Virus record (IMG/VR): IMGVR_UViG_3300032093_010015
Location: 1-30,361 of that record
Strand: one strand, 5' to 3'
Origin: a virus
Length of the DNA stretch: 30,361 nt
A model generated the notes under the pieces. The model worked only from the letters and a program-made list of their open reading frames with translations. It was not told the DNA's origin and searched no databases. Positions 1-22,200 of the stretch are shown piece after piece. The position numbers and the translations under genes are program-made. Position 1 is the first letter of the stretch. Every line of letters starts with the position of its first letter.

Positions 1-1971
1 CTTGCGACCATTAATAAATGCGCCTTGGTTTTTCTGGAATGTATCTTTACGGCGTGGTTTTTGATTGCCATAGTAATTTTCGTCAGTGATTTCATGCATT
101 TTGTAAGTTGCACGTTTTGCTACAGGATTGTTTCGTCTTGATTGCGCTAATTCAGAACGTCTAATTCGAGCAATTTCTTGATTTAGAGAACGGTCAAGAC
201 CAATACCACCTGTGCGATTAAGTTTACTTCTGTTTGGCTTGGGTCTTGTAACAATTCTTTTAACACCAGTAAAATCAATAACATCAGGAAACAAATTTCC
301 AGAACCAACTATATTTTTATCTTTAATTGAATTAAGAAGTATTCTGTTTAACATTTGAGGTGTTTGATTTTGCGATTTCCAATCATTATAACTTCGAAAG
401 TCTTTATAACCACCAGCAATTGACGCATTTCTCTCTTTTAAATTACCAAGTTGTCTTTGTGTATATGAATTCATATAACCTTTGGGAGGTTTCGACGCAA
501 TAGTAAATCTATTCGGCGATGTTGATGATTTTGATTCAATTTTTGGCACAACCGTAGTGCGCAAAATGCCTGAAATCTCAGCATCAGAATATGATGGTTT
601 GGCATTTATTGTAGTGCGAATTTTTCCAGATGTTGTTTTATCTGGAAATGTAGAACGAAGTGCACGTGATGTAGTTGGGTCAAATGGAATCATACGAGTC
701 ACTAAACGAGGTGAAACTCCCATTCTTGTTACAAGTCTGGCTTTTTGAAGTTTTCCCATTCCCATGCTTCCGCCCATCCCCATAGCACGCATTTGTGGCG
801 CATGAGGTTTATCTACTTCATAAATTTTACTCATATTTCGACCTTTTTGAAAGTATCGACCTTTAACGCCGTCTGCACCTGTCAACTCTTTACCCATTCT
901 TCCAGTTTTACCACCCATCATTTTGTTGACATATTTTTTGGGCGAAGGAACACTGTCATCGGTAAGTGTACGTGTGTACGGTACTGATACTGATTTCATA
1001 GATTTATTCATTGTTGTACCCCTCCATTTTTTGGGATTTGAAGAAATTACTTCATAAGATTTTTGAGGAACACGTTGTGCTGATAATAGTGTATCACGTT
1101 TGCTTTTTTGAGGCGCATCAAGAATTCGACGTGCATTTTGTTTTGCTTGAGATTTAAATTCATTTATTTTTTGTTGCGCTCGGCGAGATGTGTTGTCTGC
1201 AAATTGAATAGCGTCGTTTAATTTATTTTGTGCTTTTTCTTTTACATCTCTTGCCAAATTAGACATTTCTTCCTTTTTTTGATTTACCTTTTCGCCAATT
1301 TGCGATGAGTTCCATAATGACGATGCTTGCCATATCGCCGCGCCGTAAATTATTTTTTTAGCATTTTCTCGTTGTGAACCATATTTGCCAATCCAAGGAT
1401 TTCTATCTCCATTTTGTAAATCTAAAGTCAATTCTTTTTTTTGTTTTTCTAGTGCGGCTTCATACCCTTGACGAGATGCAATTTTAGCTTCTCTAGACGC
1501 CGTAGGTAGCGCATCTTCTTTTAGTTGCCGAACTACTGATTCAAGTCCTGGAAATATTCGATATAATCTGTTTTTTGGTTTTTTTCCAAACGATGAAACT
1601 TCTAAAATTTCAGGATTTTCATCAATTTTTCGTTTTAATTCTATTTTGGCAAGGCGTGTTAAATGCTTGTCTTGCAAATCAGCAGGTACAACTGTTCCGT
1701 CTTGCAAATAGTGTTTTTTACTTTTGGGTTCTCTCCAAGATTGATTTCCGTCTTTTGCTGCTTGAACTTCAATTGCCACTCGCATTTGTGCAGCAGTTTT
1801 TGGCTCTAAAATCCGCTTGTCTTCTAACAAATTTACAGCTCTTCGGACAACCGCATTAATTTGCTTGTTGACAATGCGAGGTGCTCCCCTCGCAAACCTC
1901 AATGCGTTTTTGGCGTTGCGTATTATTTCTGATTTTGCAGGTCTAACTCTTGCCTTTTTTATATAAGACAT
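1..1971 (-). CDS. Large basic low-complexity protein, C-terminus beyond window (partial)
   Basis: An uninterrupted frame of 657 codons runs from an ATG at 1971 to the left edge with no stop, so the C-terminus lies outside. The start is supported by AAGGA nine bases upstream of the ATG. It begins 17 bases after the stop of the upstream 1201-aa gene, so the two are probably co-transcribed. The protein is rich in Lys/Arg, Asn, Gln and Ser. Residues 1-200 look helical and charged. A single hydrophobic stretch sits near residues 204-222 (key residues IIYGAAIWQ), followed by a charged, coiled-coil-like helix to about 290. A Met/Gly-rich patch lies near 391-416. I recognise no family. Shared traits with the next three genes (basic, disordered, a lone hydrophobic helix in two of those) suggest one functional set, possibly virion components; this is inference. 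Confidence 0.85.
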   Translation of the reverse strand, partial: MSYIKKARVRPAKSEIIRNAKNALRFARGAPRIVNKQINAVVRRAVNLLEDKRILEPKTAAQMRVAIEVQAAKDGNQSWREPKSKKHYLQDGTVVPADLQDKHLTRLAKIELKRKIDENPEILEVSSFGKKPKNRLYRIFPGLESVVRQLKEDALPTASREAKIASRQGYEAALEKQKKELTLDLQNGDRNPWIGKYGSQRENAKKIIYGAAIWQASSLWNSSQIGEKVNQKKEEMSNLARDVKEKAQNKLNDAIQFADNTSRRAQQKINEFKSQAKQNARRILDAPQKSKRDTLLSAQRVPQKSYEVISSNPKKWRGTTMNKSMKSVSVPYTRTLTDDSVPSPKKYVNKMMGGKTGRMGKELTGADGVKGRYFQKGRNMSKIYEVDKPHAPQMRAMGMGGSMGMGKLQKARLVTRMGVSPRLVTRMIPFDPTTSRALRSTFPDKTTSGKIRTTINAKPSYSDAEISGILRTTVVPKIESKSSTSPNRFTIASKPPKGYMNSYTQRQLGNLKERNASIAGGYKDFRSYNDWKSQNQTPQMLNRILLNSIKDKNIVGSGNLFPDVIDFTGVKRIVTRPKPNRSKLNRTGGIGLDRSLNQEIARIRRSELAQSRRNNPVAKRATYKMHEITDENYYGNQKPRRKDTFQKNQGAFINGRK
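1009..1025 (-). promoter_or_regulatory. Possible internal ribosome binding site and in-frame ATG
   Basis: Within the left-most gene, GGAGGGG (1019-1025) lies seven bases upstream of an in-frame ATG (1009-1011). This would start a product at residue 321 beginning MNKSMKSVS. The SD is stronger than the one at the gene's main start. It may give a shorter C-terminal isoform, or it may be a chance effect of Trp-Arg-Gly codons. Confidence 0.3.
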
Positions 1972-1988
1972 AACAACACATCCTTAAA

Positions 1989-4900
1989 TTAAAAATACTT
2001 GTTGCTGATTTTTACACCATTTGATGTGTAGTGCTCAATTTGATTTTGATTAACTTTTTTTGAAGCATGTGGCGTAGTCATACTTTTTTTAATTTTTTTA
2101 TTTGTTTTCATCATGGTATTTGAGTATGCACTTTTTGCAACACGCTTTTTACTTCGTTTACCAAAATCATTAAACGCACCAGATACATTGTCATATTCTT
2201 TATTTTTTGCACTGCTTGACGTGTCGTTAGAATCTTTTTTTCTTGGCAACAAACCCGCTGCCATGTCAAATAGTTTTACGCCTCCCAACGTCAGTGCACC
2301 AAGAGTTGCAATTTTTCCTGCTCGTGACATTCGGTTAAATCGTCTTACAGGCCATGTTACAGCACGAACAATAGGAGTGCGCATAGCGGTATCTGCTGTT
2401 TCTTTTACACCTTCAGCAGTTGCAAGCACCGCATTTGCTTTTCCTTGTCTGGGATTTTTCATACTTCGCAATGGTCCAAGTACACGGTCTTTCCATGTGC
2501 GCTTAACATCTGCCACATTAGTAAATGCGCCTGAAGTGGGTCGAATTTCAACAAAATCATCTGGAGCTGATGCAAGTATATCTTTAACTTTTTTGCCTTT
2601 TAACTCTTCAATAGATTGTTTACTTTCTTCAGGTAGTTCATACATGCCTGAAGGTTTTATGGCGTTCAATCGACGTTGCTGCTGTTTTGTTTGATTGTAT
2701 TTTGGAACACGTCTCATTGTTCTTTGCGTTTTTGCGCTTGCAGAACTAGGTGCTGAAGGTGATGGTGCTCGCACCTCCATAACTTCGCTTACTACTTTTT
2801 TGGGAGTAGAAGGTGTTTCAGGCGTTATCGTAGTGCGAATTCTTGATGTTTGTGTTGGTTTTTTTGTTTCTGTTTGACGAGTATTTTGTTTTCCTCTAGG
2901 ATTAAATTTTCCACCACCATACATTTCTTGAAATTCTTGAGGTGTGCGAAATAACAAACTTTCCAACATTAATTGTTGCTGTAAATTTTTTCTTTTTTGT
3001 GCTTGTTGCAGTACCGCATCGTAATCAGTTGCGTTTCCTTGATTAATCAGTGCATTAAATCTTCTTATTGCTTCTGATTTTGGAAGCTTGCTTCCAGAAC
3101 GTAAATATCTCGGGTCTAAATCATCAAAACTTTCACGTTTGCCAGATGTGCTTTTTGAACGCAAATACGAAGGGTCAAACTCGTTAAAATCTGTTGTCAT
3201 AGGTGCTTCCATTCTGTATTTATTAGTTTCAGGAGATGATACTGATATTGTAGGCGATTTTTTTGTTTCAGGTTTTGAAACTTCAACAACTTTTGCACCA
3301 CTAGGAACAGTTAATGGTGCAGAAGGATTTAATATTGGACTTAATCGAGTAAGTTCGTCGTTAATTTCTGCAATACGCATTGCAGTAGATTCTCGATAAT
3401 TTCTGTTAAGCCTTCTGCGCTGAATATCTTTTTCTCTTAGCAATCGGTCTCTATATTCCGCTGGAGTCATAGATGCTGGAATGTCTGACCGCGGCGATGA
3501 ACGTGACGAGAATGATGGAGAGCTTACCGTTGACGACACTTGTTTTCGTGGTCGTACAGAAGAAGGAGGAGTTGCTGTTGTTGAAAGAACACGTGTTACA
3601 GGGGTGTATGCACCAGAAACAATGGCACGCATTCTATTTTGTCGTGTTCCTTGTGGTAGAGACTGAATTTCCGATTCAAATTGTGATACAAGATGCGGGT
3701 TTTTATCAAAAAACACACTACGCAATTCAGGTCTTAGGTATAACATACCTAATTCTCGATTATTTAAATAACTAGCACTTCGATATGATTTTGTTTTTAA
3801 ATTACGTTCAACTTCAGTTGATGAAGGTCTTTTTCTTGTATTACTTGCAGTTGCTGAAGAAGGTTTGCTTGCACGACCACTTGAACTTGAACCTGTCGTT
3901 GATGAAGAAGTAGATGGTTGGGTTTTGAGCCAATTTTCAAAATCTCTGTCTAAGTCACTTAACGAACCAGAAGCACTAGCTCTTCGTGCTGCATTTATTT
4001 CACCTTGTACAATTGACGGAATTTGACGACTTGAAGGTGCATTAACTCTTGAAGGTGAACGCACCTGCGCTGTTGGTTGAGTGTTTTGCGCAGGTTGTGC
4101 AGATTGTGTTGGTCTTGCTCCAGACGGTACAATAGGAGTGTTTGCACGTCTTGTTGGCGTGCCTACAGGTTTGACGTTTACTGGTTTTTCAGTAACCGCT
4201 TCAATTTGCCTACGCAACTTGCTGTCTGCAATAAGGTCTTTGTTTTTGCGAATTTCGTCAATTGTGTGCAAACTTGCATTTAATCTACCTCTTGACAAAT
4301 CACGTTCATAAAGTAAGTCTGAAACCTTTTTGTCAACATCAGGAGAATCTTGTTCAAGTAGCTTATCAATTTCATCTTCAATTGATTTAATTTGACTTTT
4401 GTGTGTGTTATATTGTTGTAACGCTTCCGAAACATATTTTTTGTTGACAACAATTGGTTTGGCACTGGAACTGGGCGGTTTTTCTTGAATATCTTGACGT
4501 GGAGGCTCTTGCAATCCTTGCTCTCTAGGAGACCGATACACTCGTGCGTATGGCTGACTTTCTACTGTCAGTGTTCTCCCTTTGCCAGTGCCTAAGGTTT
4601 GTGCATACCACGGATTTGATTCTGCATCTTTAATTCTTCTTTGTACGGTATTTATTTTCCCCCGCATTGCATCAATGCGGTCTGACAATCGCTCAGCTTC
4701 ACTAAATGGGTCGTCGTCAATATCCATAGAAGCAAAATCGGTAGAACGAAATTTTTCCGCTTCGTCTTGCATGGTTTTTAATTGTTGTTCTAATTTTGTT
4801 TTTTCAGCACGCATTTCCTCAATAGATGGCAAGTATGCTTTTTCAGAAGGAACTGAACTGCCACTACTCACTGGTTTTACAGTTGCAAAAGAAAATGAAG

Positions 4901-5594
4901 AAACACCTGCTATATCAGTACCTCTTGCGTCTTGTCCACTTCTTTGTGCCTGAAGCATTCGACGCGGCGCAATAAATCGTGCAACCTCGCTTCTTTTTGG
5001 ATAAGTGCTTGCTGAGTATTCACGTGATGGGTTTTGTACTACTTTATATTTTTGAGAAGGCGCAAAGTCATCGCTACTTGCAGATAGTATATTTTCAATT
5101 TGTTCTATTCTTTTTTCTGCTTTTTTTCGTTCTGAATACGACTGCGTAGGCTTTATTGAATCCGCAAGCCTAGCTTGCTCCTCCATTAATTGTTGAATAT
5201 TATTGAATTCTTGTTCCGTATTAGGACGAAAGACACTGGTGCTCAGTTGTCGATTCATTCTGTTTCCGAGCACGTCTCTTCGTTCTGATGCTTGTCCTGT
5301 TCGCACCATACGCCCTGAAGACATTTGTGGTAAATACGTCAATCCTTCAATTGGGAGGTCTTTTGCTCGACGTTCATTCATTTCTCGCCATAAACGGTCA
5401 TTGGTCTCTTTTGCGACTTTAGGGTCGTAATTTTCGTCAAAAACAGGAGTTGCCGATTCTGGAACTACGTTTGCGCTTTGAGTTTTTGATTTTGATTTGG
5501 ACTGCGCTTTTTGCAATAGCGAACTTACTGCCTTGCGAGGTGTGGTAGTGTCTTTGAAGTATTTAGGAACAATAGGTGTTGAGTATTTGGACAT
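1989..5594 (-). CDS. 1201-aa basic, Ser/Arg-rich, largely disordered protein
   Basis: ATG at 5594 is preceded by GAGGTGA about four bases upstream. The gene follows the stop of the 1179-aa gene by 11 bases, so it sits in the same operon. The product is dominated by Ser, Arg, Pro, Thr and Lys in low-complexity stretches. Charged coiled-coil-like segments lie near residues 257-325, 395-440 and 700-735. A short tandem duplication around 800-835 repeats the pattern DP.YLRS. One hydrophobic segment near 1090-1115 (GALTLGGVKLFDMAAGLL) is flanked by Arg/Lys clusters, and the last 80 residues are very Lys-rich. No enzyme motif, signal peptide or known domain is evident. The hydrophobic helix inside a basic tail could contact membrane or a capsid surface, but nothing here proves that. 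Confidence 0.9.
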   Translation of the reverse strand: MSKYSTPIVPKYFKDTTTPRKAVSSLLQKAQSKSKSKTQSANVVPESATPVFDENYDPKVAKETNDRLWREMNERRAKDLPIEGLTYLPQMSSGRMVRTGQASERRDVLGNRMNRQLSTSVFRPNTEQEFNNIQQLMEEQARLADSIKPTQSYSERKKAEKRIEQIENILSASSDDFAPSQKYKVVQNPSREYSASTYPKRSEVARFIAPRRMLQAQRSGQDARGTDIAGVSSFSFATVKPVSSGSSVPSEKAYLPSIEEMRAEKTKLEQQLKTMQDEAEKFRSTDFASMDIDDDPFSEAERLSDRIDAMRGKINTVQRRIKDAESNPWYAQTLGTGKGRTLTVESQPYARVYRSPREQGLQEPPRQDIQEKPPSSSAKPIVVNKKYVSEALQQYNTHKSQIKSIEDEIDKLLEQDSPDVDKKVSDLLYERDLSRGRLNASLHTIDEIRKNKDLIADSKLRRQIEAVTEKPVNVKPVGTPTRRANTPIVPSGARPTQSAQPAQNTQPTAQVRSPSRVNAPSSRQIPSIVQGEINAARRASASGSLSDLDRDFENWLKTQPSTSSSTTGSSSSGRASKPSSATASNTRKRPSSTEVERNLKTKSYRSASYLNNRELGMLYLRPELRSVFFDKNPHLVSQFESEIQSLPQGTRQNRMRAIVSGAYTPVTRVLSTTATPPSSVRPRKQVSSTVSSPSFSSRSSPRSDIPASMTPAEYRDRLLREKDIQRRRLNRNYRESTAMRIAEINDELTRLSPILNPSAPLTVPSGAKVVEVSKPETKKSPTISVSSPETNKYRMEAPMTTDFNEFDPSYLRSKSTSGKRESFDDLDPRYLRSGSKLPKSEAIRRFNALINQGNATDYDAVLQQAQKRKNLQQQLMLESLLFRTPQEFQEMYGGGKFNPRGKQNTRQTETKKPTQTSRIRTTITPETPSTPKKVVSEVMEVRAPSPSAPSSASAKTQRTMRRVPKYNQTKQQQRRLNAIKPSGMYELPEESKQSIEELKGKKVKDILASAPDDFVEIRPTSGAFTNVADVKRTWKDRVLGPLRSMKNPRQGKANAVLATAEGVKETADTAMRTPIVRAVTWPVRRFNRMSRAGKIATLGALTLGGVKLFDMAAGLLPRKKDSNDTSSSAKNKEYDNVSGAFNDFGKRSKKRVAKSAYSNTMMKTNKKIKKSMTTPHASKKVNQNQIEHYTSNGVKISNKYF

Positions 5595-5605
5595 TACTCA
5601 CCTCA

Positions 5606-9145
<3,540 letters not shown>

Positions 9146-9164
9146 ATCTGCCTCTACATGCAAC

Positions 9165-9204
9165 AAAACGTGGGGAAGAAATGACGCATCATTCCCCACG
9201 TTTT
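9165..9204 (-). terminator. Intrinsic terminator-like hairpin between two giant genes
   Basis: Perfect 12-bp arms AAAACGTGGGGA / TCCCCACGTTTT enclose a 16-base loop. The A-tract on one side and T-tract on the other make it plausible in either direction. It starts 13 bases after the stop of the 1140-aa gene and ends about seven bases before the SD of the 1179-aa gene. It would therefore end or attenuate transcription between them. Confidence 0.75.
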
Positions 9205-9217
9205 AAAATACTAATTA

Positions 9218-12200
9218 TTATTGGTACTTTGCTCGAAAATTACGAGTTGCCAATGTGGGAGTTGCCGATTTAAACAATTTTGAACCACCACGATAACCGC
9301 CAACCAAATGTCGTGTTCCAGCACTTCTCATGCTTGATACTGACTTCATCATTGACTTACCTATCATTGGAGGCTTGCCTGGTTGTGGTTTTCGTATAGG
9401 ACGAGGTATGTTTGGTAGTGGCATTATGCCAATCGGCGGTGTGTTTGGTCGTGGTTTTCGTATAGGACGAGGTATGTTTGGTAGTGGCATTATGCCAATT
9501 GGAGGTGTGTCTGGTTGTGGTTTTCGTATACCACCGCCACCAATCGGTGGTGGTGTTTGCATTTGACCTCCAAACGCTTTCATCATTGACTTCATCATGG
9601 CTCGACCACCCATTGATGGTTTGTTAGCTTTTATCCATGCTTGTTGGTTAGCACGAGGATTTGTCCCTGCCAAAATTTTACCCCAACCAGAAGCGTCTTG
9701 TGACTTCATCATGGCTCGACCACCACGATAACCGCCAACCAAATGTCGTGTTCCAGCACTTCTCATGCTTGATACTGACTTCATCATGCCACTTGTTCCA
9801 CCTGTACCGCTTTTATAAGACTTTTGACCTTGCATCGCACCTTGCATTGAACCATTTGCACTACGATTTTGTTTAGGAAATGAATATGTAGATGGTTTTG
9901 CTGGTTGTGTTGGTTGGCGTGTTGCTTGTTGCATATTGTTGTAACGAGAATCATTATAGTCAACACGTGGCTTTGGGTTGTATTGATTATATGATTGAAG
10001 CATTGATAATAGTTTTGATTGTGCTGGTGTTTCAAAATGTAATGGTTGTGGTGATGGTTGTGGTGTCTGTGATGACGATGTTGGTTGCGGTGGTGCTTGT
10101 GTTGCAAAAGTTTCCATCCGTTGTATTTGTTTTGGAGACATTGTTCTTCTTGGCTCTTGAAAGTTCATAGATGGATACAGTGGATTTTGTGGTTGACCAC
10201 GCATTGCACCTGCTTGCGCAGCTTGCATCGCACCATTTGGTCCAATGATTAAATTGGCTGTGGGCATAGCGTATTGACCTGCTGTAGATAGACCTGGTGT
10301 GGGTGTTGGCATTTGATTATTTTTTGTTATTCTTCGTGTGCGCTTAGACATAGATGACTTTGCCATTTTCTTTCCACCACGATAACCGCCAAGCAAATGC
10401 TCAATTCCTGCACTGCGCATGCGTGATACTGATTTACGCATTGATTTGCCTATTGGTTTAAAGAAACCATTACTTCCCAAGTTTATCTCACCAGGTGCTT
10501 GATGAACACCACCACTAATCGGAGGTGTGACTGGTTGTGGTTTTCGTATAGGACGAGGTATGTTTGGTAGTGGCATTATGCCAATTGGAGGTGTGCCTGG
10601 TTGTGGTTTTCGTATAGGACGAGGTGTGCCTGGTTGTGGTTTTCGTATACCACCGCCACCAATCGGTGGTGGTGTTTGCATTTGACCAAACGCTTTCATC
10701 ATTGACTTCATCATGGCTCGACCGCCCATTGATGCGTGACCATACAAATCACGTCGTGAAGGTTTGGGCATTGATTTACCTTTTGTCATGTTTTTACCTT
10801 TCTTAATTGACTTTGCATCAGAATATTGTTCAAAGTCGGTAATATCATTACTATCTTTTTGTCTTGTTGATACGTATCGTTTTAATTGTGGGTCATACAC
10901 CATTTTGTCTTTTACTTGTTTTTGCGGTTTCCATGTACTCGTTGGTTTCATGGTGCCAGTTTCCCAAATTTGCATATCGTTTTTGCGTGATGCAATAGGA
11001 ATTCCTTGCGCAACTTGGTCTTCACGCATTTGTTTACGAGGACCTTTAGGCATATCGGCGTATATTGAAACCCACTCACCTTTTTTATTTGGCGCAGTAC
11101 GGTACATATATGTGTCTTTTAAACCGCCAGTTAATTTTGGCTTGGGCGTAGGCACAATGCTTTCACCCCAATCACGTACAAATTGCAATGCTCGTTCAAT
11201 TGCATTTGACTCATCGTAACGACCAGTACGCTTACGCTCGCCTACAGTTTTTGCTCGAGTTGCCAAATCTTTCATAGATGGAACATTGGTGGTTTGCGAA
11301 AACGCTGGAGTATACTCTGTTGCAGGAATGGAAATAGATATTTTCTTAGAACGATTGCCAATTCCCTTTTTGCTTTCTTGAGAAACCAAATCAACAAGTT
11401 GCTTTCCGTAATCCAATATTTCTCCATACGTTTTACGATTTTCACGAGCAGCAATTTGTCCGTATTTTTTAGCACTTGACATGACACCAGGTGCATACTC
11501 TTTGGTTTTTCTTGATGTGCCATGTATTAAATTGGTGTTAGGTGTAATGTATTGATTCATTACATCAATAATGTCATCAACGACATTGTTTTTTGTATTA
11601 GAAGATTTTTTAATCATGCGTTTTTGAGTTGAAACTCCTCGAATAAAAGTCGGCAACTGTTTTGAGTTACTAGTATTAGACTTTTGTTTTCTTCGTGATA
11701 AAAAATCTTTAATTTCTTGTTCTTTTCGAGATTGTTTTCTTTGCATAAAATCATCATAAAACGCAGAATTCATTTTGCGAGGTATTTCATTACCAAATGC
11801 ATTTGTTGATGAAGATGAAGTTTTATCTTTTGACTCGGATTTTGAATTTGATAAATATTTTTTTCCTGCTTCAACTGCTTGATTGTACCAATCATTTGAA
11901 GATTTTGGTTTTTCATCTTCAACGTCAAAAAGTTGCCACGGTTTGAGAGAAGCCACGCCTAATGCAATAGCGGCATTTCGAAGGTTTTTTCGATTTCTAA
12001 TAACAAAATTAGTTGCATCTTGAGCTTTTACGTTTCCTGCTTCAATTTCCGTACTTTTTCTTGCTGCATAATTGTCTTTTGCTTTTCCAGATTGGTCTAT
12101 TTGGTCTTTTAATGTTTTAATTTTTTTCTCGTTTTGCTCAATTAATGCTTGTTCTCGCTCAACAAGTCTTTCATACTCTCTTGCTTGCCTGTCTTCTTTT

Positions 12201-12640
12201 CTTCGCCATACTTTTCCAGCTTTTGAGCCCAAGTATTGCCACAATGGAGATACAGGTTCGGGTACATATGCAGCGGCAATTGGGTCAACAGGTTTTACTG
12301 GCTCAAATGGCGGTGCGCCAGGCGGAACTGGAGAACTTACAGACATCACCTCTGGTTCTGCTGGTGTTGGTGTTGGTGTTGGTTCTTGTTCTTTTAATTT
12401 AGTTTTTCTATTGTTTAAATTTTCGCTACGTTCACTTTTCTTACCACCTACAATTCGCCTTGTGACTGTAGTTGTTTCTTCAACTACATCACCTACGTTT
12501 GGCACTCTTGCTATTCTTGCTTTTCTAATATTCCCTTTTGCAAAAGGTTTATTTGATGCATACTGCGTCATGCCAGCCGACGCACTGCTTACGCCTGAAT
12601 TACCAGGCATTTTTTTAATTTCAGAAAATATTTTGCTCAT
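9218..12640 (-). CDS. 1140-aa basic protein with Pro/Gly/Met-rich C-terminal repeats
   Basis: ATG at 12640; only a weak AGAAAGA precedes it. It is the first giant gene after the 73-aa gene and is followed by a terminator hairpin. The N-terminus is low complexity with a PTPTPTP linker near 85-95. A charged coiled coil lies at about 142-190, and a hydrophobic segment AAIALGVASLKPWQLF near 220-237 is preceded by Arg/Asn/Lys. The C-terminal 500 residues are built from repeats. MRSAG..HL.GGYRGG occurs three times. A block with MMKSMMKAFG plus a TPPPIGGGGIRKPQP-type sequence occurs twice, and IGIMPLPNIPRPIRKP occurs three times. An IIGPNGAMQAAQAGA motif near 795-813 matches the neighbouring 1179-aa protein. 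No known family. The Arg/Gly- and Pro-rich repeats suggest multivalent binding to nucleic acid or protein. Confidence 0.88.
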   Translation of the reverse strand: MSKIFSEIKKMPGNSGVSSASAGMTQYASNKPFAKGNIRKARIARVPNVGDVVEETTTVTRRIVGGKKSERSENLNNRKTKLKEQEPTPTPTPAEPEVMSVSSPVPPGAPPFEPVKPVDPIAAAYVPEPVSPLWQYLGSKAGKVWRRKEDRQAREYERLVEREQALIEQNEKKIKTLKDQIDQSGKAKDNYAARKSTEIEAGNVKAQDATNFVIRNRKNLRNAAIALGVASLKPWQLFDVEDEKPKSSNDWYNQAVEAGKKYLSNSKSESKDKTSSSSTNAFGNEIPRKMNSAFYDDFMQRKQSRKEQEIKDFLSRRKQKSNTSNSKQLPTFIRGVSTQKRMIKKSSNTKNNVVDDIIDVMNQYITPNTNLIHGTSRKTKEYAPGVMSSAKKYGQIAARENRKTYGEILDYGKQLVDLVSQESKKGIGNRSKKISISIPATEYTPAFSQTTNVPSMKDLATRAKTVGERKRTGRYDESNAIERALQFVRDWGESIVPTPKPKLTGGLKDTYMYRTAPNKKGEWVSIYADMPKGPRKQMREDQVAQGIPIASRKNDMQIWETGTMKPTSTWKPQKQVKDKMVYDPQLKRYVSTRQKDSNDITDFEQYSDAKSIKKGKNMTKGKSMPKPSRRDLYGHASMGGRAMMKSMMKAFGQMQTPPPIGGGGIRKPQPGTPRPIRKPQPGTPPIGIMPLPNIPRPIRKPQPVTPPISGGVHQAPGEINLGSNGFFKPIGKSMRKSVSRMRSAGIEHLLGGYRGGKKMAKSSMSKRTRRITKNNQMPTPTPGLSTAGQYAMPTANLIIGPNGAMQAAQAGAMRGQPQNPLYPSMNFQEPRRTMSPKQIQRMETFATQAPPQPTSSSQTPQPSPQPLHFETPAQSKLLSMLQSYNQYNPKPRVDYNDSRYNNMQQATRQPTQPAKPSTYSFPKQNRSANGSMQGAMQGQKSYKSGTGGTSGMMKSVSSMRSAGTRHLVGGYRGGRAMMKSQDASGWGKILAGTNPRANQQAWIKANKPSMGGRAMMKSMMKAFGGQMQTPPPIGGGGIRKPQPDTPPIGIMPLPNIPRPIRKPRPNTPPIGIMPLPNIPRPIRKPQPGKPPMIGKSMMKSVSSMRSAGTRHLVGGYRGGSKLFKSATPTLATRNFRAKYQ
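9285..9790 (-). repeat. Repeat block A at the 3' end of the 1140-aa gene
   Basis: Two copies of a roughly 68-bp sequence encoding MRSAGTRHLVGGYRGG lie at 9285-9352 and 9719-9786. Between them are two tandem copies (about 9380-9515) of a roughly 66-bp unit encoding PIGIMPLPNIPRPIRKP. Long stretches look identical at DNA level, so duplication or gene conversion is recent. Confidence 0.9.
10374..10740 (-). repeat. Repeat block B, diverged copy of block A
   Basis: A diverged copy of the YRGG unit (10374-10440) is followed by the PLPNIPRPIRKP unit (about 10530-10590). Next come the TPPPIGGGG unit (about 10655-10682) and MMKSMMKAFG with GGRAMM. The order matches block A. Confidence 0.85.
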
Positions 12641-13019: not shown

Positions 13020-13048
13020 ATAATATAAGAAATAAGAAAATTGTGCAA
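13020..13048 (-). promoter_or_regulatory. Sigma70-type promoter for the leftward 73-aa/giant-gene unit
   Basis: On the minus strand TTGCAC (13043-13048) is followed after exactly 17 bases by TATTAT (13020-13025). Transcription would begin about 25-30 bases before the ATG at 12985. Spacing is ideal, with five of six matches at -10. An overlapping plus-strand TATAAT (13019-13024) lacks a good -35. Confidence 0.6.
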
Positions 13049-13073
13049 TACCACACAAAAGGAGACGTATTGT

Positions 13074-13682
13074 ATGAATAAATCACGCACATCACCAGTT
13101 GTTATTGATAAGCGAGAACGTGCAGTGCAAGCACTTGAATTGCGCAAAGCGGGTATATCATACGATTTAATTGCACAACGATTAAACTATTCAAATCGCA
13201 CTGCCGCATATCGTGCTGTAAGTAGACTTTTGTCTGCAACTGAAAAAGAGGCATCGAACGATTTGCGAGAAGTGGAATTGCGACGTTTAGACGACTTGTT
13301 TTTGTCAGTATACCAAAAAGCAAGAAACGCCGCTGACCCATTGCAATTGCAAGCAGTTGACCGATGTTTACGCATTATGGAACGTCGTGCCAAAATTGCT
13401 GGTATTGATGCACCCGAAAAAACACAAACCGATGTGCGTCAAGTTATCAAAGTGGTATACGAAGATGTTCAGTACGCCGATGATTTTGATGATGAGCCAA
13501 GTCAGGCACAACAAATGCAACATGCAGGGTTACTTGCTATGGGTGCCAATACAGAGGTGTCTGATGAGGAGTGGGAGGAATATGAGGATGACGATGAAGA
13601 GTGGGGTGATGATGATACGGCACAAAATACAGACGAATTATCGCCTATTGACAGCACCGTCTCTGTCAATCATACCAAGTAA
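13074..13682 (+). CDS. Helix-turn-helix protein, terminase small subunit-like
   Basis: The start at 13074 (MNKSRTS...) is chosen because AAAGGAG precedes it by about nine bases; a TTG start at 13041 has no SD. The 202-aa product has a basic helix-turn-helix at about residues 25-50 (AGISYDLIAQRLNYSN). A helical region with a repeated ELRRLD / DRCLRIMERRAKIAG pattern follows to about 113. The tail (134-190) is very acidic, with Glu/Asp/Trp runs. This arrangement, including the RRAKIxGxDAP sequence, is typical of phage small terminase/HTH proteins that recognise pac or cos DNA before packaging. The family call rests on pattern recognition. No large terminase lies next to it in the window, so a regulatory DNA-binding role remains possible. 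It opens the rightward four-gene block. Confidence 0.7.
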   Translation: MNKSRTSPVVIDKRERAVQALELRKAGISYDLIAQRLNYSNRTAAYRAVSRLLSATEKEASNDLREVELRRLDDLFLSVYQKARNAADPLQLQAVDRCLRIMERRAKIAGIDAPEKTQTDVRQVIKVVYEDVQYADDFDDEPSQAQQMQHAGLLAMGANTEVSDEEWEEYEDDDEEWGDDDTAQNTDELSPIDSTVSVNHTK

Positions 13683-15749: not shown

Positions 15750-16406
15750 TTACTCTTGGTCGTATGGTTTGCGACGACCATCGTCTTCTACGTACTTATC
15801 ATAGCACGTGCCACACACGTTTGAGAGTGTGCCTCCATAATGTAAGGGAAGTAAATCATCTTCCCATACAAGTGAATCGCACTTTTCGCACTCAACCTTC
15901 TTCCCTTTCAGGTTTTCCAGTTCTGCGAAAACTGTTTTTAATGCTTTGAGCATCACATCAATGTGAGGCTCTTCCAAGCGAGCGTATTGAAACGCTCCTG
16001 TTGGAACCCCTGAGATAGCTGAAAGCAGGTCAACAACCTCGTTGACCTTTGGCATAAATACTTCTTGGCGGTACACCTCCTTTTGAACAACGATGCGTTG
16101 CTGTTCCTTACTTGCCTCAACTTGCTTGTCGAGGCGAGTGCGATACTCATCCCAACGCATAAACAAGTGCTTAATGTACACAAATTCTTGGCGGTTTTGT
16201 CCCACCAAGTCCACCTTGATATACATGCCACGGTTGTCCTTGTCGGCTGGGAGATACTTAGTTTCCCAGCGATACTTGTGCTTGTAGTGCGGTTGCACAT
16301 CCAGCACAACCACACAGTCCGCACTCCATGGCACGTCTGCTAAGCCTTGATAGCTTGCAGAAAGTGCCCATTTTTGCCCTACTTCCAGTTGGCTGAATTT
16401 AGCCAT
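15750..16406 (-). CDS. Phage protein with C-terminal zinc ribbon (218 aa), paralogue of the 174-aa gene
   Basis: SD AGAAAGGAAC and a dedicated promoter (16438-16466) support ATG 16406. Residues 1-95 match the 174-aa neighbour. Shared positions include MAKF..LEVGQ.WALS, DVPW, LDV.PH, RG.Y.KV and HLFMRWDEY..RL. A helical middle follows. Unlike the paralogue, it carries a C-terminal putative zinc ribbon: Cys173-x2-Cys176 and Cys198-x2-Cys201. The shared N-domain is small and mixed alpha/beta. I recall similar uncharacterised proteins in tailed phages but no function. A nucleic-acid or protein-binding role through the zinc ribbon is inferred. The two genes look like a tandem duplication in which one copy gained or lost the ribbon. 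Confidence 0.85.
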   Translation of the reverse strand: MAKFSQLEVGQKWALSASYQGLADVPWSADCVVVLDVQPHYKHKYRWETKYLPADKDNRGMYIKVDLVGQNRQEFVYIKHLFMRWDEYRTRLDKQVEASKEQQRIVVQKEVYRQEVFMPKVNEVVDLLSAISGVPTGAFQYARLEEPHIDVMLKALKTVFAELENLKGKKVECEKCDSLVWEDDLLPLHYGGTLSNVCGTCYDKYVEDDGRRKPYDQE

Positions 16407-16516: not shown

Positions 16517-17041
16517 TTACTTGTTGTCGGCTTGTATTAACGCCTCTGATTCGGCGTGTTGCAACAAACTCAACAACAAGTCGATTGCTGGCTCGTACTC
16601 TTTAACAAGTAACCCCTTGAGTGGGTACGAACTAATCACCTTTTCACCGTGAAGATAATTCACGATTTTGGCAATTTGGTCTAGTTTTGGTTGCATTACA
16701 GTTTGACTGTAAGCAAGCCGTTCAGAAACCGCTTGATTATTTCGGTCACGCAGTTCCGTTTGTGCCTTAAGTCGTTGAGAATATTCATCCCAACGCATGA
16801 ACAAGTGCGGTACATACGCAAACCGCTCTTCTTGAAGCGTTTCGCTAAACCGATGCTCAACCTTGACGTACAACCCCCGCTCGTTTGCACGAACAGGAAT
16901 GTACTTATACCCACGTTGCTTGTGTGGTGTAACGTCAAGAATCTTGACGTGACGAGCGTTCCATGGCACATCAAGTGCATATGCACGCTCTCCACTTAAC
17001 GCCCACTCTTGACCTACTTCAAGGTCTTTAAACTTAGCCAT
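16517..17041 (-). CDS. Phage protein of unknown function (174 aa), paralogue of the 218-aa gene
   Basis: SD GTAGAAAGGAAC precedes ATG 17041 by about ten bases, and the promoter at 17081-17109 serves this gene alone. The N-terminal 95 residues align with the 218-aa protein, including a shared HLFMRWDEY near 85-93. The C-terminal half is a separate helical region with no Cys pairs, so the zinc ribbon is absent. Both paralogues keep the same promoter type, SD and terminator design. This points to duplication of a whole transcription unit rather than of the coding part alone. Function is unknown; early or accessory expression is inferred from the strong promoter. Confidence 0.85.
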   Translation of the reverse strand: MAKFKDLEVGQEWALSGERAYALDVPWNARHVKILDVTPHKQRGYKYIPVRANERGLYVKVEHRFSETLQEERFAYVPHLFMRWDEYSQRLKAQTELRDRNNQAVSERLAYSQTVMQPKLDQIAKIVNYLHGEKVISSYPLKGLLVKEYEPAIDLLLSLLQHAESEALIQADNK

Positions 17042-17080: not shown

Positions 17081-17109
17081 AATATACCATTTAATATATA
17101 TATTGTCAA
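17081..17109 (-). promoter_or_regulatory. Promoter for the 174-aa gene (family member 4)
   Basis: TTGACA (17104-17109), 17-base spacer (ATATATATATTAAATGG), TATATT (17081-17086) on the minus strand. The -35 overlaps the stop codon of the tail chaperone gene. No terminator separates the tail operon from this promoter, so tail transcripts may read through. Confidence 0.85.
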
Positions 17110-17519
17110 ATATTTTCTGGTGTAACTTCTGGTGTAACTTCTGGTGTAACTTCTGGTGTAACTTCTGGTGTAACTTCTGGTAATATATCAAGAATTAACG
17201 TTGGCCATGCAGGTGCAGTCCATTCGTCAATGTTGATTAATTGCGGATAATCTCGCAGTGCTTGACGATATTCACGGTATCGTTGACGGGTCAAGTCGTC
17301 AATATCAACATCAGGCATTTGCGTCCAATCAGTTGCAATCAATAGTTCATTTCGACGCAATCGAACCATTCGCATAGCTTCTTCTTTTGAATATGGCTCG
17401 TCAATCAATGAACTATCTTCAGGAATACTGCACTTTTTTCCATAATAATCAATGTGCACAATATGAACAGGTTGAGTTAAGTAAACACGTTGCACCCTAA
17501 ATAAAAATATACTACTCAT
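17106..17519 (-). CDS. Phage tail assembly chaperone (PF16778-like) with PEVT tail
   Basis: AAGGAG lies six bases before ATG 17519, nine bases after the preceding stop. The 137-aa product carries the family hallmark: RRNELLIATDWTQMPD at 55-70 followed by YREYRQALRDYP at 81-92. This is the RN.LL..TDWTQ.PD...YRQALRD signature of phage tail assembly chaperone PF16778. These proteins are usually encoded beside tail tip or fibre genes, as here. After residue 113 the protein ends in five and a half tandem PEVT units, which is unusual for the family. It is the last gene of the coupled tail operon. Confidence 0.85.
   Translation of the reverse strand: MSSIFLFRVQRVYLTQPVHIVHIDYYGKKCSIPEDSSLIDEPYSKEEAMRMVRLRRNELLIATDWTQMPDVDIDDLTRQRYREYRQALRDYPQLINIDEWTAPAWPTLILDILPEVTPEVTPEVTPEVTPEVTPENI
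17115..17180 (-). repeat. 12-bp tandem repeat, 5.5 copies, encoding (PEVT)n
   Basis: The unit TTCTGGTGTAAC (plus strand) is repeated five times without change, then half a copy. Because 12 is a multiple of three, copy-number changes stay in frame and alter only the length of the chaperone's C-terminal tail. Confidence 0.95.
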
Positions 17520-17528
17520 GTTTGCTCC

Positions 17529-18062
17529 TTATACTATTTTGACTAAATTTAAAATAGGAGAACCTGCAAATGACAAATCAGATGGAATGTTTATTATTTG
17601 CGTGTATTCATCACTGCTAAATGCAAATTGTACAATATCTCCTTCATCAACAAAAAACGTAAATGAAAAACTATTTGAACCATTTGAATTTACAGTGCCA
17701 CCTAACTGTTGCACCGTTTGAACTATGACATCGTTAACATACAACCTCATAATAGATTTAGTAATATCCTTGTCAAAAGACAATGTTATATTTGCATTGT
17801 AAAATCCTTGACGATTTACAAAAATAAACGGCGTTCCGTCTTGCCATGAAATGGGAATTTCAATACCGTTATCACGGTCTGAATTAATTAATGAATATCC
17901 CCATGATAAAAAAAGCCACGAATTTCCAAACACTTCTTGATTTTCTGAATAAGTAAGTGTGGTATACGATAGTTCGTTTGTAAACGATAGTGCTTGCGCC
18001 GATTGAATTCTATTAACACTGCGGGTTAACGCTAAAAGTTGACGTGCAGATTGGTCAATCAT
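17529..18062 (-). CDS. Tail-associated protein with C1q/TNF-like jelly-roll appearance
   Basis: The ATG overlaps the upstream TGA in an ATGA (18059-18062), so translation is coupled to the Gp37-like gene. Residues 1-25 are probably a helical attachment region. Residues about 75-155 show an all-beta pattern: a GFYNANITLSF strand at 86-96, MRLYVNDVIVQTV near 105-117, then a Ser-rich turn. SFSFTFFVDEGDIVQFAFSS follows at 131-150. This G.Y.....L.F...L.VN......SFSF...V..GD.VQF.. pattern resembles C1q/TNF-like jelly-roll domains found on phage tail accessory and receptor-binding proteins. The homology call is by pattern only. Position between tail tip and chaperone genes supports a tail-fibre or tip role. 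Confidence 0.5.
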   Translation of the reverse strand: MIDQSARQLLALTRSVNRIQSAQALSFTNELSYTTLTYSENQEVFGNSWLFLSWGYSLINSDRDNGIEIPISWQDGTPFIFVNRQGFYNANITLSFDKDITKSIMRLYVNDVIVQTVQQLGGTVNSNGSNSFSFTFFVDEGDIVQFAFSSDEYTQIINIPSDLSFAGSPILNLVKIV

Positions 18063-19273
18063 TGCGTATATGCCTCCGACACTCGCATTTGAGTAACTAT
18101 TTGTTCAGCCTTATTTGTAATAGTAATAGATATACCATTAATGCGCACATCAACAATAGAGCCAAATGCGTTGATTGTTACAAAATCTCCATATCCCCAG
18201 TCAACACCAAACAAAAAACCTGGTGAGTCTTGCACGGTGGCATATACAGAGTACACAGGATAATTAATAGGCTCTTTCAAATATTTAGTTGCTTCTCCAA
18301 TTAAATCAGATGTTTTCGATTGCAATAATACTTCTCGATATGCAAACGGAGAATTGGCAATGCGTGTTTTATCAATCACAGGAGCACTTGCTGAAATAGT
18401 TGGAGTTGTACCAGAAAGCCCTTGATACACAGAAATAACTGATGTTTTTTCTTCTTGCCAATCAATTATCAAACGAATATCCTGCAATTGACTAGACGTA
18501 TCACTTAATAATACTGCTTTATTGTTTGCGTTTACAAAACGCCTGTCTAATCCTCTTTGATTAGCAAATTGCGTAAATACATATTGATTTGTACTTGTAG
18601 CAATAGTATCAAAATAGACAGGATACAATGTTTCATTAACATCTACAGGAAACTGTGTCATTTGAGATAATTCTTGTAACGCAGTTAAAAGATTTGCATA
18701 TGCAAATGCAATGCCTTTACTGCTGTAATGAGTAATTAAATAACCGTAATTACTTAATTGTTTGCCTTCGCTAAAATTTGGTAAACGACGAATGCTAGAA
18801 TTTGAACCTATGTTATTTTGCACTAAATCGTACATAATTGCAGAGTTTGTAACATTTTTATATGCAGTTTGTGGACTGTTGCCAAATTGCGCACTAGTAA
18901 TTCTACTTGCAAGCAAATAGTTTGTGTCATATGCGGTCATTTTAACAACAAACGAACCAGTTGATTCACGAAATTGTTCAATAGACCGAACAAACCATAT
19001 TGTGTCTAGCAATAGTGTGCGTTGATTGCCTATAGTGCGATAAATAGCAAGAATGGTGTCTTTTTTTAACATTCCGTATCGTGACATAAATGTTAAAACC
19101 GCCGCACTATTTGAGCCACCGCTTAATCGAATGTAACATGCACCAATTTCGCCAACAGCACGAGTAATAGACAACTCAATAAATAAATTAAAATCCACAA
19201 TATTAAACGGTGCAATAATATTTCCTGAACTATCACACACAAAAATTTCATATTTTGCATTTGGAAATATCAT
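18059..19273 (-). CDS. Siphovirus ReqiPepy6 Gp37-like tail protein
   Basis: The 404-aa product overlaps the upstream giant gene by an ATGA (19270-19273). It starts with Y.I.V.DSSGNI.AP.N..DF near 8-30, then L.I.RAVGEIGACYIRL. A central region follows with TLLLDTIWFVRSIEQ (about 86-100) and MTAYDTNYLLASR (about 112-124). The C-terminus has INYPVYSVYATVQDSPGFLFGVDWGYGDFV and ends ...QIVTQMRVSE. This layout (beta-rich hub entry, D.NYLL..R, then G.DW..GD.V) matches the Siphovirus Gp37-like family (PF14594), which behaves as a tail-tip/baseplate hub protein. It directly follows the Dit-like gene, as expected. Confidence 0.75.
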   Translation of the reverse strand: MIFPNAKYEIFVCDSSGNIIAPFNIVDFNLFIELSITRAVGEIGACYIRLSGGSNSAAVLTFMSRYGMLKKDTILAIYRTIGNQRTLLLDTIWFVRSIEQFRESTGSFVVKMTAYDTNYLLASRITSAQFGNSPQTAYKNVTNSAIMYDLVQNNIGSNSSIRRLPNFSEGKQLSNYGYLITHYSSKGIAFAYANLLTALQELSQMTQFPVDVNETLYPVYFDTIATSTNQYVFTQFANQRGLDRRFVNANNKAVLLSDTSSQLQDIRLIIDWQEEKTSVISVYQGLSGTTPTISASAPVIDKTRIANSPFAYREVLLQSKTSDLIGEATKYLKEPINYPVYSVYATVQDSPGFLFGVDWGYGDFVTINAFGSIVDVRINGISITITNKAEQIVTQMRVSEAYTQ

Positions 19274-22200
19274 AATCCTGCCTTTGTCGTACCAAAAAAC
19301 ATGTTATTAGCGTCAAACGACCAAAACCGTGGATTGTAGTTGATAGTAATATTCATTCCTGCTTGCGCATGTATTCCAATAATGTTAATGCGATAATCGT
19401 CATACGATTGCGTATATTTTCCTGCAGAATTGTTTGCACCAAGCAATATCCAATCTACAAAATTTGATGTTGGGCTAATGAAAGAAATCATATTTCCTCG
19501 AATATTTGATGTAATAGAACGTTGCCCTGGCAATAAATTAATGATAATTTCCTCATATGCTAAAACTAACAACCCAGAATTGTCAAAACGAACTCGTGCG
19601 CCTGTTTCTGTTTGATACAATTCGTAAATAGTTTTATTTGATGCGCCATTTCTAATGCGAATAATTGGGTAAACCGATGCGTTTCCTCGTATACGTAGTG
19701 AAAAATATTGCATCTTGCTGGAAATTGTATTTACATTTACTGCATTGTTTAAAAACCCATGATGAACAATAGCAATATTCGAACCTGAAATTCCGTCCAA
19801 TACATTTGTAATTGGATTAACCGCATATTTACGCATGCGATTTGTAGACGCAATTGCAGTTGTCTGAGAGCGAATAATGTTTGAACTATTACGATTAACT
19901 GGAAAAATAACATCTGCATTTACGATAGTTTGAAGATTTCCTGATATGGTTGAACCTTCCGCATATGCTAAACTGTGTGTGACAGATTCATTATTTAGTG
20001 TTCCAGTAAAAACACCGCCAATCAACAATTTATCACCACTGCCCACATATCCATTAATAGGATTAATGTCAGTAATATCTCGCACCAAATTAACTGTGTT
20101 GTTAAATCCATTGTTTGCATACGATGTGCCGACAATGGGTGAAGCATACGAATCAAATACTTTTCCGTTTGCTATTAATGGCGTCACTCTAGCAACACGT
20201 CCAACGTTTCGTTTTACAGAATCATACGATGTTGTAGTTCCAACATATGATGCGTCAACCCAATGAGTAAAATTACCACTAATAATAAGAGTTCCATTTT
20301 GCGTAGTAGTTATATCGTAAATTGGTCCATCAGTTAACCCCATAGGTTGCCAATCGGTGTTCACAAATGATGGTAAACCTGTATCAAGCAGTGGGTATTC
20401 ATCATACACGTATTCAATGTTAAAATATCTTCCGTTTTTTAAACCGTTTGTATATGGGCTTCCATCAATACTTGCCAATTGCATAATTGCATTAGAAAAT
20501 GTGTCAATTACTCGGTATTGACCATCAACAATTGTATTGCCATTTATATCAATACTAAAAACAGTAATGACACAACCTGAGTATAATTGTTCAGCAAACT
20601 TTGTGGCAGTGCCAAAAGGTCGAACAATTCCTGTTTCTGTAATAGTAATTTGACCAATGCCTGGCATTGAACGTATGCAATATCCACCAACAAATGATTC
20701 GTTAGAAAAATCTGAAATTGTAGTTGCCGATAATGTTACAACCATTGTTGTACTATCAACAATATTATTAATTGTGCCAATTTTAGACCAAGAACCATCA
20801 GTATCATTTTGCACGTAAAAACCCGTACCATTCATGTTATTTCTATTTAAATAGTCATACACTAGATAGTCAAATCGGGTTCCTGAGCCACTAATAAACG
20901 CTTGCGTTCCACCTATTCCTCCAATGGTTACCTTTTGTACAATGCGACCTTCCATTCTTCCAATGAATTCCGAAAATACGTGTTTACGGTGTACACGAAC
21001 TTTTTGCGTAGTTAGTGTTCTGTCAATTGGCAAAACCGTGTACATTCTTGAAATGGTAAAATTCATTTCTACAATTTGACCAATAATATCGTTGTTTTCA
21101 ATGTTGAATGCGTTATTGTCTGAAGCATCTCGAGAACGCATTACATCACCAGGTATAATGTGGTATCTTAAAACGTTTTCAGTATATGCATATATTGTTG
21201 GATAAGAACGCCCTTGTGCGTTACTTACACCCAATAGGCTTCCAATTAAGTTAGGAGATGTAGCAACTCCAACTGCACCGCTAGAAGAGTTAATAGTAAT
21301 TTGAAGATTTGTATTATTTACAAGTGAAATGTTACGCCCTTCATTGTTTGCAGGTGTGTTTGCCCCATTAAATACGTACAAATTAGGATTAGGAGCATAA
21401 AAATATGATGACAACGATGTGCGTTGCGCTGGTTGCACAAGAGTAAATGTTTTTGTTGTTGTGTTTACTGTTGCAATTTTTCCAATTAACGAACTATTTA
21501 CGTTATAAACAGAATTTCCAACATTAATTAAATTATCACCAGCGTATGAACCAGCAACTTCTCCTTCGTTTATATATAATTCGTTATTTATACCAGAACC
21601 ATATGACAACATGTGAACCATATCTACGTTAGATACATTTGATGCATCTGCCCATATAAAATAACTGTCTACATTGTTTGTGTTGGCATATGGCATATTG
21701 GAAAAGTTTAATTGCGTATTGTTAATAGCACTTCCCAAAATGCCCATATATGCTCCATTAGTTCGCCACAACGCAGTGGTATTTGCAAACTGCGATACTG
21801 GCGCATTTGTCATTGTTACTAACGGGGAAATAGAATCTGATGAAATGTATTGATATGTTCCTGAGTAAGTAACAGTAGAATTTGATGCTAATACAGCTTG
21901 TATAGGAGAATTAGCACTATTAACCACACCAATACTTGTTACGCCATCAGATTGAAATAATGTTTTTCCCACAAGTGTATACGCATCAGGTTGACCGTTA
22001 ACAGATACTAAATTACTTCCGTTTGTTACCGATATACGATTAAACAAATCTGTTGATTGCCTGTTTGAAGTACGTAATTGCATAGCAATTGTTGATGGTG
22101 CGTATATAATAACTTCGCCTAATGGGTCGTTAATATTTATTGTGGCGTTTGATGCAAGAATTAATTGATTTGTTCCCACGTCTACTACTGTGCCAATGTA

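What the first reader, a model, noticed from the sequence alone, without database searches (positions are those of the whole stretch)
1..12640. Four adjacent giant basic, largely disordered proteins of unknown function
About 12.6 kb, a large investment for a phage, encodes proteins of at least 657, 1201, 1179 and 1140 aa. They have long low-complexity stretches, Thr-Pro linkers, Arg/Gly or Pro repeats and no known enzyme motif. Three of them carry a single hydrophobic helix next to basic residues. The lack of recognisable families makes this the best candidate for an undescribed system. Options include internal virion or ejected proteins, a capsid-surface coat, or condensate-forming scaffolds.
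Basis: inference. Interest (0 to 1): 0.75.

Follow-up and report, generated by a model that had tools for sequence, protein, structure and literature searches.

The report
Probable giant phage head-interior proteins
An uncultured tailed phage and its relatives carry a long run of very large, mostly unstructured and mostly basic proteins that share a tag at their ends and carry signals resembling those of the capsid protein, so they are probably packed inside the virus head and trimmed there; the patterns are seen in sequence, while the role is inferred and untested.

Summary
The four giant ORFs are real, under purifying selection, and match no family in Pfam, PHROGs or NCBIfam. They are only the part of a longer block that fits in the window: relative G005 has 11 consecutive such genes (22.8 kb, 7,424 aa). 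One protein (P3) is only mildly basic, and the 'hydrophobic helices' fall below a transmembrane cut-off.

Three patterns bear on function. (i) 10 of 11 G005 block proteins end in a [KR]Y tag, often NKYF (0.26 expected). (ii) Met-x-Lys sites are enriched; they resemble hydrophobic-x-Lys-[Ser/Thr/Ala] sites conserved in relatives' capsid protein and protease/scaffold (HK97 also cuts at Lys/Ser). (iii) In distant relative G008, a block protein ends in DLQAPAKNTYP, nearly the capsid protein's N-arm (DLQAPAKNLYP); P3 carries a much weaker resemblance.

Best explanation (0.6): internal head proteins, brought into the prohead by a C-terminal tag and/or capsid mimicry and cut by the prohead protease, as T4 internal proteins are through an N-terminal signal. 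Entry, cutting and final role are inferred. Motif patterns were chosen after inspection, and the window phage's own head genes were not found. Virion proteomics would decide.

The parts
9218..12640 (-). P4, 1140 aa, pI 10.4; internal repeats GGRAMMKS and MRSAGxxHLxGGYRGG; first gene of the block
   Evidence: dN/dS 0.35
9221..9232 (-). C-terminal tag AKYQ of P4
5606..9145 (-). P3, 1179 aa, Thr-Pro-rich, pI 9.2
   Evidence: AlphaFold mean pLDDT 33; dN/dS 0.44
5720..6040 (-). P3 residues 1036-1142: strongly conserved stretch without predicted secondary structure
   Evidence: dN 0.082, dS 1.52
5936..6013 (-). P3 residues 1045-1070, KLKKDISVGTGLTAHATQPVKESPMP: weak resemblance to the capsid protein's maturation site and N-arm
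   Evidence: HMM E about 0.2, 1 of 2000 shuffles as good, hhalign P 0.004 but probability 8.5%
5609..5623 (-). C-terminal tag DKYKK of P3
1989..5594 (-). P2, 1201 aa, pI 10.1; coiled-coil-like stretch and one weak hydrophobic segment (residues 1098-1116)
   Evidence: dN/dS 0.42
1992..2003 (-). C-terminal tag NKYF of P2
1..1971 (-). P1, at least 657 aa, pI 10.5; the relative's copy ends three residues further, in LKY
   Evidence: AlphaFold mean pLDDT 41; dN/dS 0.26
544..999 (-). P1 residues 325-476: highly conserved stretch without predicted secondary structure
   Evidence: dN 0.043, dS 0.555; no helix or strand in the model
1..39 (-). P1 C-terminus TFQKNQGAFINGRK; QGA[FY]I[ND]G after h-x-K also occurs in two block proteins of G008
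13041..13682 (+). Neighbour: small-terminase-like protein (phrog_645), divergent from the block; 51% identical to the gene divergent from the block in G008
18059..19273 (-). Neighbour: minor tail protein (Sipho_Gp37), used to find relatives

Best explanation
The block encodes a set of internal head (capsid-interior) proteins. Shown: 10 of 11 block proteins of G005 share a C-terminal [KR]Y tag; Met-x-Lys sites are over-represented in the blocks of the window, G002 and G008; and one block protein of G008 ends in a near-exact copy of the capsid protein's N-arm, with a much weaker resemblance in P3. Inferred: the tag and/or the capsid-like segment brings each protein into the prohead core; the prohead protease then cuts at hydrophobic-x-Lys|[Ser/Thr/Ala/Gly], as it is inferred to cut the capsid protein and the scaffold, removing the tag and perhaps splitting the proteins into smaller, mostly basic pieces; the products stay with the packaged DNA or are ejected with it. 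Which of these last roles applies is open.
For: Tag: [KR]Y within the last six residues in 10 of 11 proteins, 0.26 expected, at most 4 in 20,000 draws. Sites: Met-x-Lys observed against shuffles: window 24 vs 11.8, G002 14 vs 4.6, G008 26 vs 8.5, none of 1000 shuffles as high; G005 weaker, 27 vs 17.9, 19 of 1000; tail and tape-measure controls 11 vs 7.4, not enriched. Capsid side: all 32 capsid proteins examined have K-[STA]-I, with Ile or Leu two residues before the Lys where read, ahead of DLQAPAKN; the protease/scaffold of four relatives keeps two h-x-K-[STA]-[LI] sites in a variable region; HK97 cleaves at K103/S104 (PMC10275583). In G005, h-x-K-[ST] lies in the last 60 residues of 6 of 11 proteins, 1.6 expected, P 0.0006 uncorrected. 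Mimicry: the 1133-aa G008 block protein ends RDLQAPAKNTYPPAGKKK; among 1657 ORFs the arm profile finds four capsid proteins, then this protein, then the three P3 orthologues; 0 of 2000 shuffles reach the G008 score. In both G008 and the window the block is divergent from a small-terminase-like gene, 51% identical between them.
Against: No protein-level data. The window phage's own capsid protein and protease were not found; they are inferred from G009 (tape measure 58%, minor tail 67% identical to the window group). The P3 resemblance alone is marginal (HMM E about 0.2, hhalign probability 8.5%), and the next ORF in that ranking, the G009 protease/scaffold, scores almost the same (E 0.27). The cleavage consensus is read from conservation, not measured. 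Motif patterns were chosen after looking at the sequences and several variants were tried; two of six C-terminal site tests were null, and broader site patterns are not enriched. Sites in P4 lie in internal repeats and are not independent. The KY tag is absent from the G008 block. Named phages with this capsid type that were checked lack such a block. Basic disordered proteins also suit nucleic-acid binding outside the virion.
Confidence: 0.6

Rival explanations
1. They are pilot proteins ejected ahead of the DNA, which line the tail path and cross the cell envelope, the weak hydrophobic segments inserting in the membrane. This is a special case of internal virion proteins.
For: P2 has one segment of mean hydropathy 1.44 and the G002 P4 one of 1.39; large internal proteins of other phages are ejected (established for T4, P22, T7, as stated in PMC10052503).
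Against: No segment reaches 1.6 and most proteins have none near it; no lytic or channel domain was found.
Confidence: 0.15
2. They are non-virion proteins that bind nucleic acid or form condensates in the infected cell, for example to organise phage DNA or disturb the host.
For: Basic, disordered, low-complexity composition; short Cys-x(1-2)-Cys...Cys-x-Cys knuckles in four proteins of G005 and G008.
Against: Does not explain the capsid-arm copy in G008 or the enriched protease-like sites.
Confidence: 0.15
3. They decorate the outside of the capsid or tail, like a flexible coat.
For: Thr-Pro-rich and Gly-rich linkers.
Against: The arm copied by the G008 protein follows the predicted maturation site of the capsid protein, a region that in HK97 lies on the shell's N-terminal side and is flexible; no Ig-like or other display domain found.
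Confidence: 0.07
4. The ORFs are chance or decaying reading frames.
For: Fast divergence of the central parts and repeat expansions.
Against: dN/dS 0.26-0.44 for all four, and 0.05-0.08 in two conserved stretches; intact in three phages, with P2 incomplete in G002 only because its contig ends.
Confidence: 0.02

Closest known systems
Phage T4 internal head proteins (IPI-III, Alt) with capsid targeting sequence (PMC5694885)
   Same: A set of proteins that share a short terminal signal and, by inference here, are cut by the prohead protease
   Different: T4 propeptides are N-terminal, 10-20 residues; here the shared tag is C-terminal, the proteins reach 1200 aa, and the inferred site has Lys before the cut (T4 has Glu; own knowledge)
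Ejection / inner-body proteins of jumbo phages SPN3US and phiKZ (PMC10052503, PMC5694885)
   Same: Large mass of internal head protein; several cuts per propeptide are known there
   Different: Those are myoviruses with N-terminal propeptides; no sequence relation was found, and here everything is inferred from sequence
Phage P1 DarB (PMC9024508)
   Same: A very large protein brought into the capsid by a terminal signal
   Different: N-terminal signal; anti-restriction function; no sequence relation found
HK97-type capsid maturation (PMC10275583)
   Same: Cut between Lys and Ser ahead of the N-arm (K103/S104), the same kind of site as conserved in these capsid proteins
   Different: In HK97 the substrate is the capsid protein; a set of giant extra substrates is not part of that system (own knowledge)

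Membership tests
T4-like internal head proteins with CTS | Shared N-terminal targeting peptide of 10-20 residues | tested here: not met
   N-termini of the block proteins differ; the shared element is at the C-terminus
T4-like internal head proteins with CTS | Cut by the prohead protease | not testable with these tools
   Only candidate sites can be named
T4-like internal head proteins with CTS | Present inside the virion | not testable with these tools
   No proteomics available
Known phage protein families (PHROGs, Pfam, NCBIfam) | Profile match above cut-off | tested here: not met
   P1-P4: no family above cut-off; five further block proteins of G005 and one of G008 show only coiled-coil or sub-threshold noise
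HK97-type capsid protease substrates | h-x-K-[STA]-[IL] site as in the capsid protein and scaffold of these phages | tested here: inconclusive
   Met-x-Lys enriched in three of four blocks beyond 1000 shuffles, weaker in G005; broader patterns not enriched
Capsid-arm mimics | Copy of the capsid N-arm DLQAPAKNLYP | tested here: inconclusive
   Met in the G008 1133-aa protein (10 of 11 residues); only a weak resemblance in P3 and none in P1, P2, P4

The most novel reading that the evidence does not exclude
A siphovirus lineage spends over 20 kb on giant, disordered internal head proteins that enter the prohead through a removable C-terminal tag and by imitating the capsid protein's own N-arm, and that the prohead protease then cuts into basic pieces that help to condense the genome. 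Targeting by a C-terminal tag together with capsid mimicry would be new as far as I know.
Probability: 0.3. Interest if true: 0.8.

Novelty: new variant of a known kind. Interest (0 to 1): 0.6.

Why it matters
If right, a large block of phage genes without known relatives gains a place (the head interior) and a testable code: a C-terminal tag, a protease site and a capsid-arm copy. Internal head proteins, best known from T4 and jumbo myoviruses, would turn out to be a major part of a siphovirus lineage, and the tag would be a candidate C-terminal peptide for loading cargo into phage heads.

Tried and rejected
Profile searches of the four proteins and of solved structures gave nothing beyond coiled-coil noise. 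Named phages searched with P4 and with two G008 block proteins: no match. One-genome-per-species scans with a conserved P1 piece and with the small-terminase-like protein found no relative, so the host stays unknown.

Motif work, in order: six Lys-Ser patterns, a residue profile around Lys (140 cells per group) and four broader patterns, three C-terminal site patterns at two lengths, Met-x-Lys with controls. Plain 'KS' counts are close to shuffles. Broad patterns such as [MIV]xK[SAGTD] are not enriched in the window, G005 or G002 sets. Of the six C-terminal tests four gave P 0.0002-0.015 and two gave 0.40 and 0.58. None of these P values is corrected for the number of tries.

Basic ORFs near capsid genes in high-GC relatives look like shadow frames and were not used. 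The membrane-helix reading fell below cut-off. Four named phages with this capsid type were checked for a similar block and none was seen (for Sonali and Polewnik only a selection of genes; Strzyga was fetched but not examined). I first noted the G008 arrangement as the same gene order as the window; it is not (see report).

Full report
WHAT IS THERE. The window is a 30,361-base linear virus record. Positions 1-12640 of the minus strand hold four long ORFs, here P4 (9218-12640), P3 (5606-9145), P2 (1989-5594) and P1 (1-1971, cut by the window end) in order of transcription. They have no usable match in Pfam, PHROGs or NCBIfam, and P4 has none in named phages. P1, P2 and P4 are strongly basic (pI 10.1-10.5); P3 is mildly basic (pI 9.2). 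The rest of the window is a siphovirus tail module (Sipho_Gp37 minor tail protein, tail assembly chaperone, a 3684-aa tail protein) and three plus-strand genes, among them a small-terminase-like and a VRR-NUC nuclease gene.

RELATIVES. IMG/VR holds a contig of the same phage (G001, 100% identical over P4) and two related ones, G002 (28,766 b) and G005 (40,488 b). In G005 the block does not stop at four genes: it runs 7723-30523 with proteins of 973, 1122, 1156, 640, 100, 1043, 446, 783, 402, 508 and 251 aa (7,424 aa), ten of eleven with pI above 9. P1-P4 evolve under purifying selection against G005 (dN/dS 0.26-0.44). Two stretches are far more constrained than their surroundings: P1 325-476 (dN 0.043, dS 0.555) and P3 1036-1142 (dN 0.082, dS 1.52). 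AlphaFold places no helix or strand in either (only 2-3 sequences in the alignments). Conserved but unfolded stretches suggest short binding motifs; that is inference.

A COMMON C-TERMINAL TAG. Ten of the eleven G005 proteins have [KR]Y within the last six residues (ends such as AKYE, TKYF, LKY, NKYFK, NKYL, NKYFN, NKYM, NKYF, SRYK). Random six-residue pieces of the same proteins give 0.26 on average and never more than 4 in 20,000 draws. The complete window proteins agree (AKYQ, DKYKK, NKYF), though as orthologues they are not independent. A few pairs share longer modules, for example KRQAGPKPNKY.

FINDING THE HEAD GENES. The minor tail protein led to G006, which holds a protease/scaffold ORF (head maturation protease, phrog_9427, E 9e-26) and a capsid protein (phrog_13692). 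That capsid protein found 480 relatives. Among them are G009, whose tape measure and minor tail proteins are 58% and 67-69% identical to those of the window group, and G008, an 87,876-base contig. All 32 capsid proteins examined have K-[STA]-I ahead of DLQAPAKN, with Ile or Leu two residues before the Lys wherever I read it. The protease/scaffold ORFs of four relatives keep two sites of the same form, [IV]xKSL and VxK[STA][LI], within a stretch that otherwise varies. HK97 cuts its capsid protein between K103 and S104 (PMC10275583). I infer, without measurement, that the protease of these phages cuts at h-x-K|[STA].

THE BLOCK CARRIES CAPSID-LIKE SIGNALS. G008 has four very basic ORFs (1133, 379, 218 and 316 aa) together, divergent from a small-terminase-like gene that is 51% identical to the window's; in the window P4 is divergent from that gene too. 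The wider order differs: in G008 the tail module lies beyond the far end of the block, in the window on the terminase side. The 1133-aa Thr-Pro-rich protein of G008 ends ...AGMKKDITSAFVPSIGVKQGKKRDLQAPAKNTYPPAGKKK, with ten of eleven residues of the arm DLQAPAKNLYP. A profile of 32 capsid N-arms, run against 1,657 ORFs, finds four capsid proteins, then this protein (E 0.001), then the three P3 orthologues (E 0.21-0.23), then the G009 protease/scaffold (E 0.27). Shuffled sequences reach the G008 score in 0 of 2000 and the P3 scores in 0-1 of 2000. The P3 segment GKLKKDISVGTGLTAHATQPVKESPMP aligns in register with the Lys|Ser site, with a profile-profile P of 0.004 but a probability of only 8.5%. 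The three P3 copies are orthologues and count as one observation. G008 and the window group also share QGA[FY]I[ND]G after an h-x-K, and short Cys knuckles. Met two residues before Lys is over-represented in the blocks of the window (24, 11.8 expected), G002 (14, 4.6) and G008 (26, 8.5), more weakly in G005 (27, 17.9), and not in tail or tape-measure controls (11, 7.4). In G005, h-x-K-[ST] falls in the last 60 residues of 6 of 11 proteins against 1.6 expected.

HOW STRONG THE STATISTICS ARE. The tag and the site patterns were defined after looking at these sequences, and more than a dozen pattern variants were counted on the way (listed under tried and rejected). The P values are uncorrected. 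Shuffles ignore the internal repeats of P4, which hold 11 of the hydrophobic-x-Lys-[Ser/Thr] sites counted in the window, so the window count overstates independent evidence. I rest the case on two things that survive this: the C-terminal tag, where the excess is very large, and the near-exact arm copy in G008. The enriched sites, their clustering near the C-terminus and the P3 resemblance are supporting and could each fail on new data.

MECHANISM. Best reading (0.6): the proteins are brought into the prohead core by the tag or the arm copy, cut by the prohead protease, and kept with the packaged DNA or ejected with it. The patterns are shown; entry, cutting and final role are inferred. T4 targets its internal proteins by an N-terminal, cleaved signal (PMC5694885), P1 targets DarB by its N-terminus (PMC9024508), and SPN3US cuts propeptides at several sites (PMC10052503). 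The present case may work like these, but is not filed as a member of their families: the shared signal is C-terminal and no sequence relation was found.

LIMITS. The head genes of the window phage itself were not found. The tag is missing in G008, so tag and arm copy may be alternative routes, or one of the two may have nothing to do with the capsid. Seven of the eleven block genes are known from a single contig. Named phages that share the capsid type show no such block in what was checked. The host is unknown.

Noticed in passing
window 19270-30324: A 3684-aa tail protein with many diverged repeats of about 60 aa (PTAxxLVGxxLYTxxGxxIGxVxSASSAT); no PHROG match.
   Followed up: no
window 17106-17519: Tail assembly chaperone-like protein (PF16778) ends in (PEVT)n; the copy number differs between relatives (compare L021:2759-3184).
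   Followed up: no
window 9165-9204: Between P4 and P3 lies a 13-bp perfect inverted repeat (AAAACGTGGGGAA ... TTCCCCACGTTTT), terminator- or attenuator-like, read; it could set the P4:P3 ratio.
   Followed up: no
window 15750-16406 and 16517-17041: Two adjacent paralogues (MAKFxxLEVGQxWALS) of unknown function next to the tail chaperone.
   Followed up: no
L121-L125 (G008): Many scattered paralogues starting MGRNRKKAGVGAVE; the contig's two ends seem to share sequence, so it may be complete.
   Followed up: no
L022:4494-6845 and L025:11267-13357: The 783-aa block protein of G005 has a long Gly run and a Ser run; P4 of G002 has a long Gly-Thr run, so block proteins seem to grow by simple repeats.
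   Followed up: no
L036:2-2905, L127:828-4358: In G006 and G009 the head maturation protease is part of one long ORF (967-1177 aa) with extra N-terminal sequence and a scaffold-like C-terminal part.
   Followed up: partly
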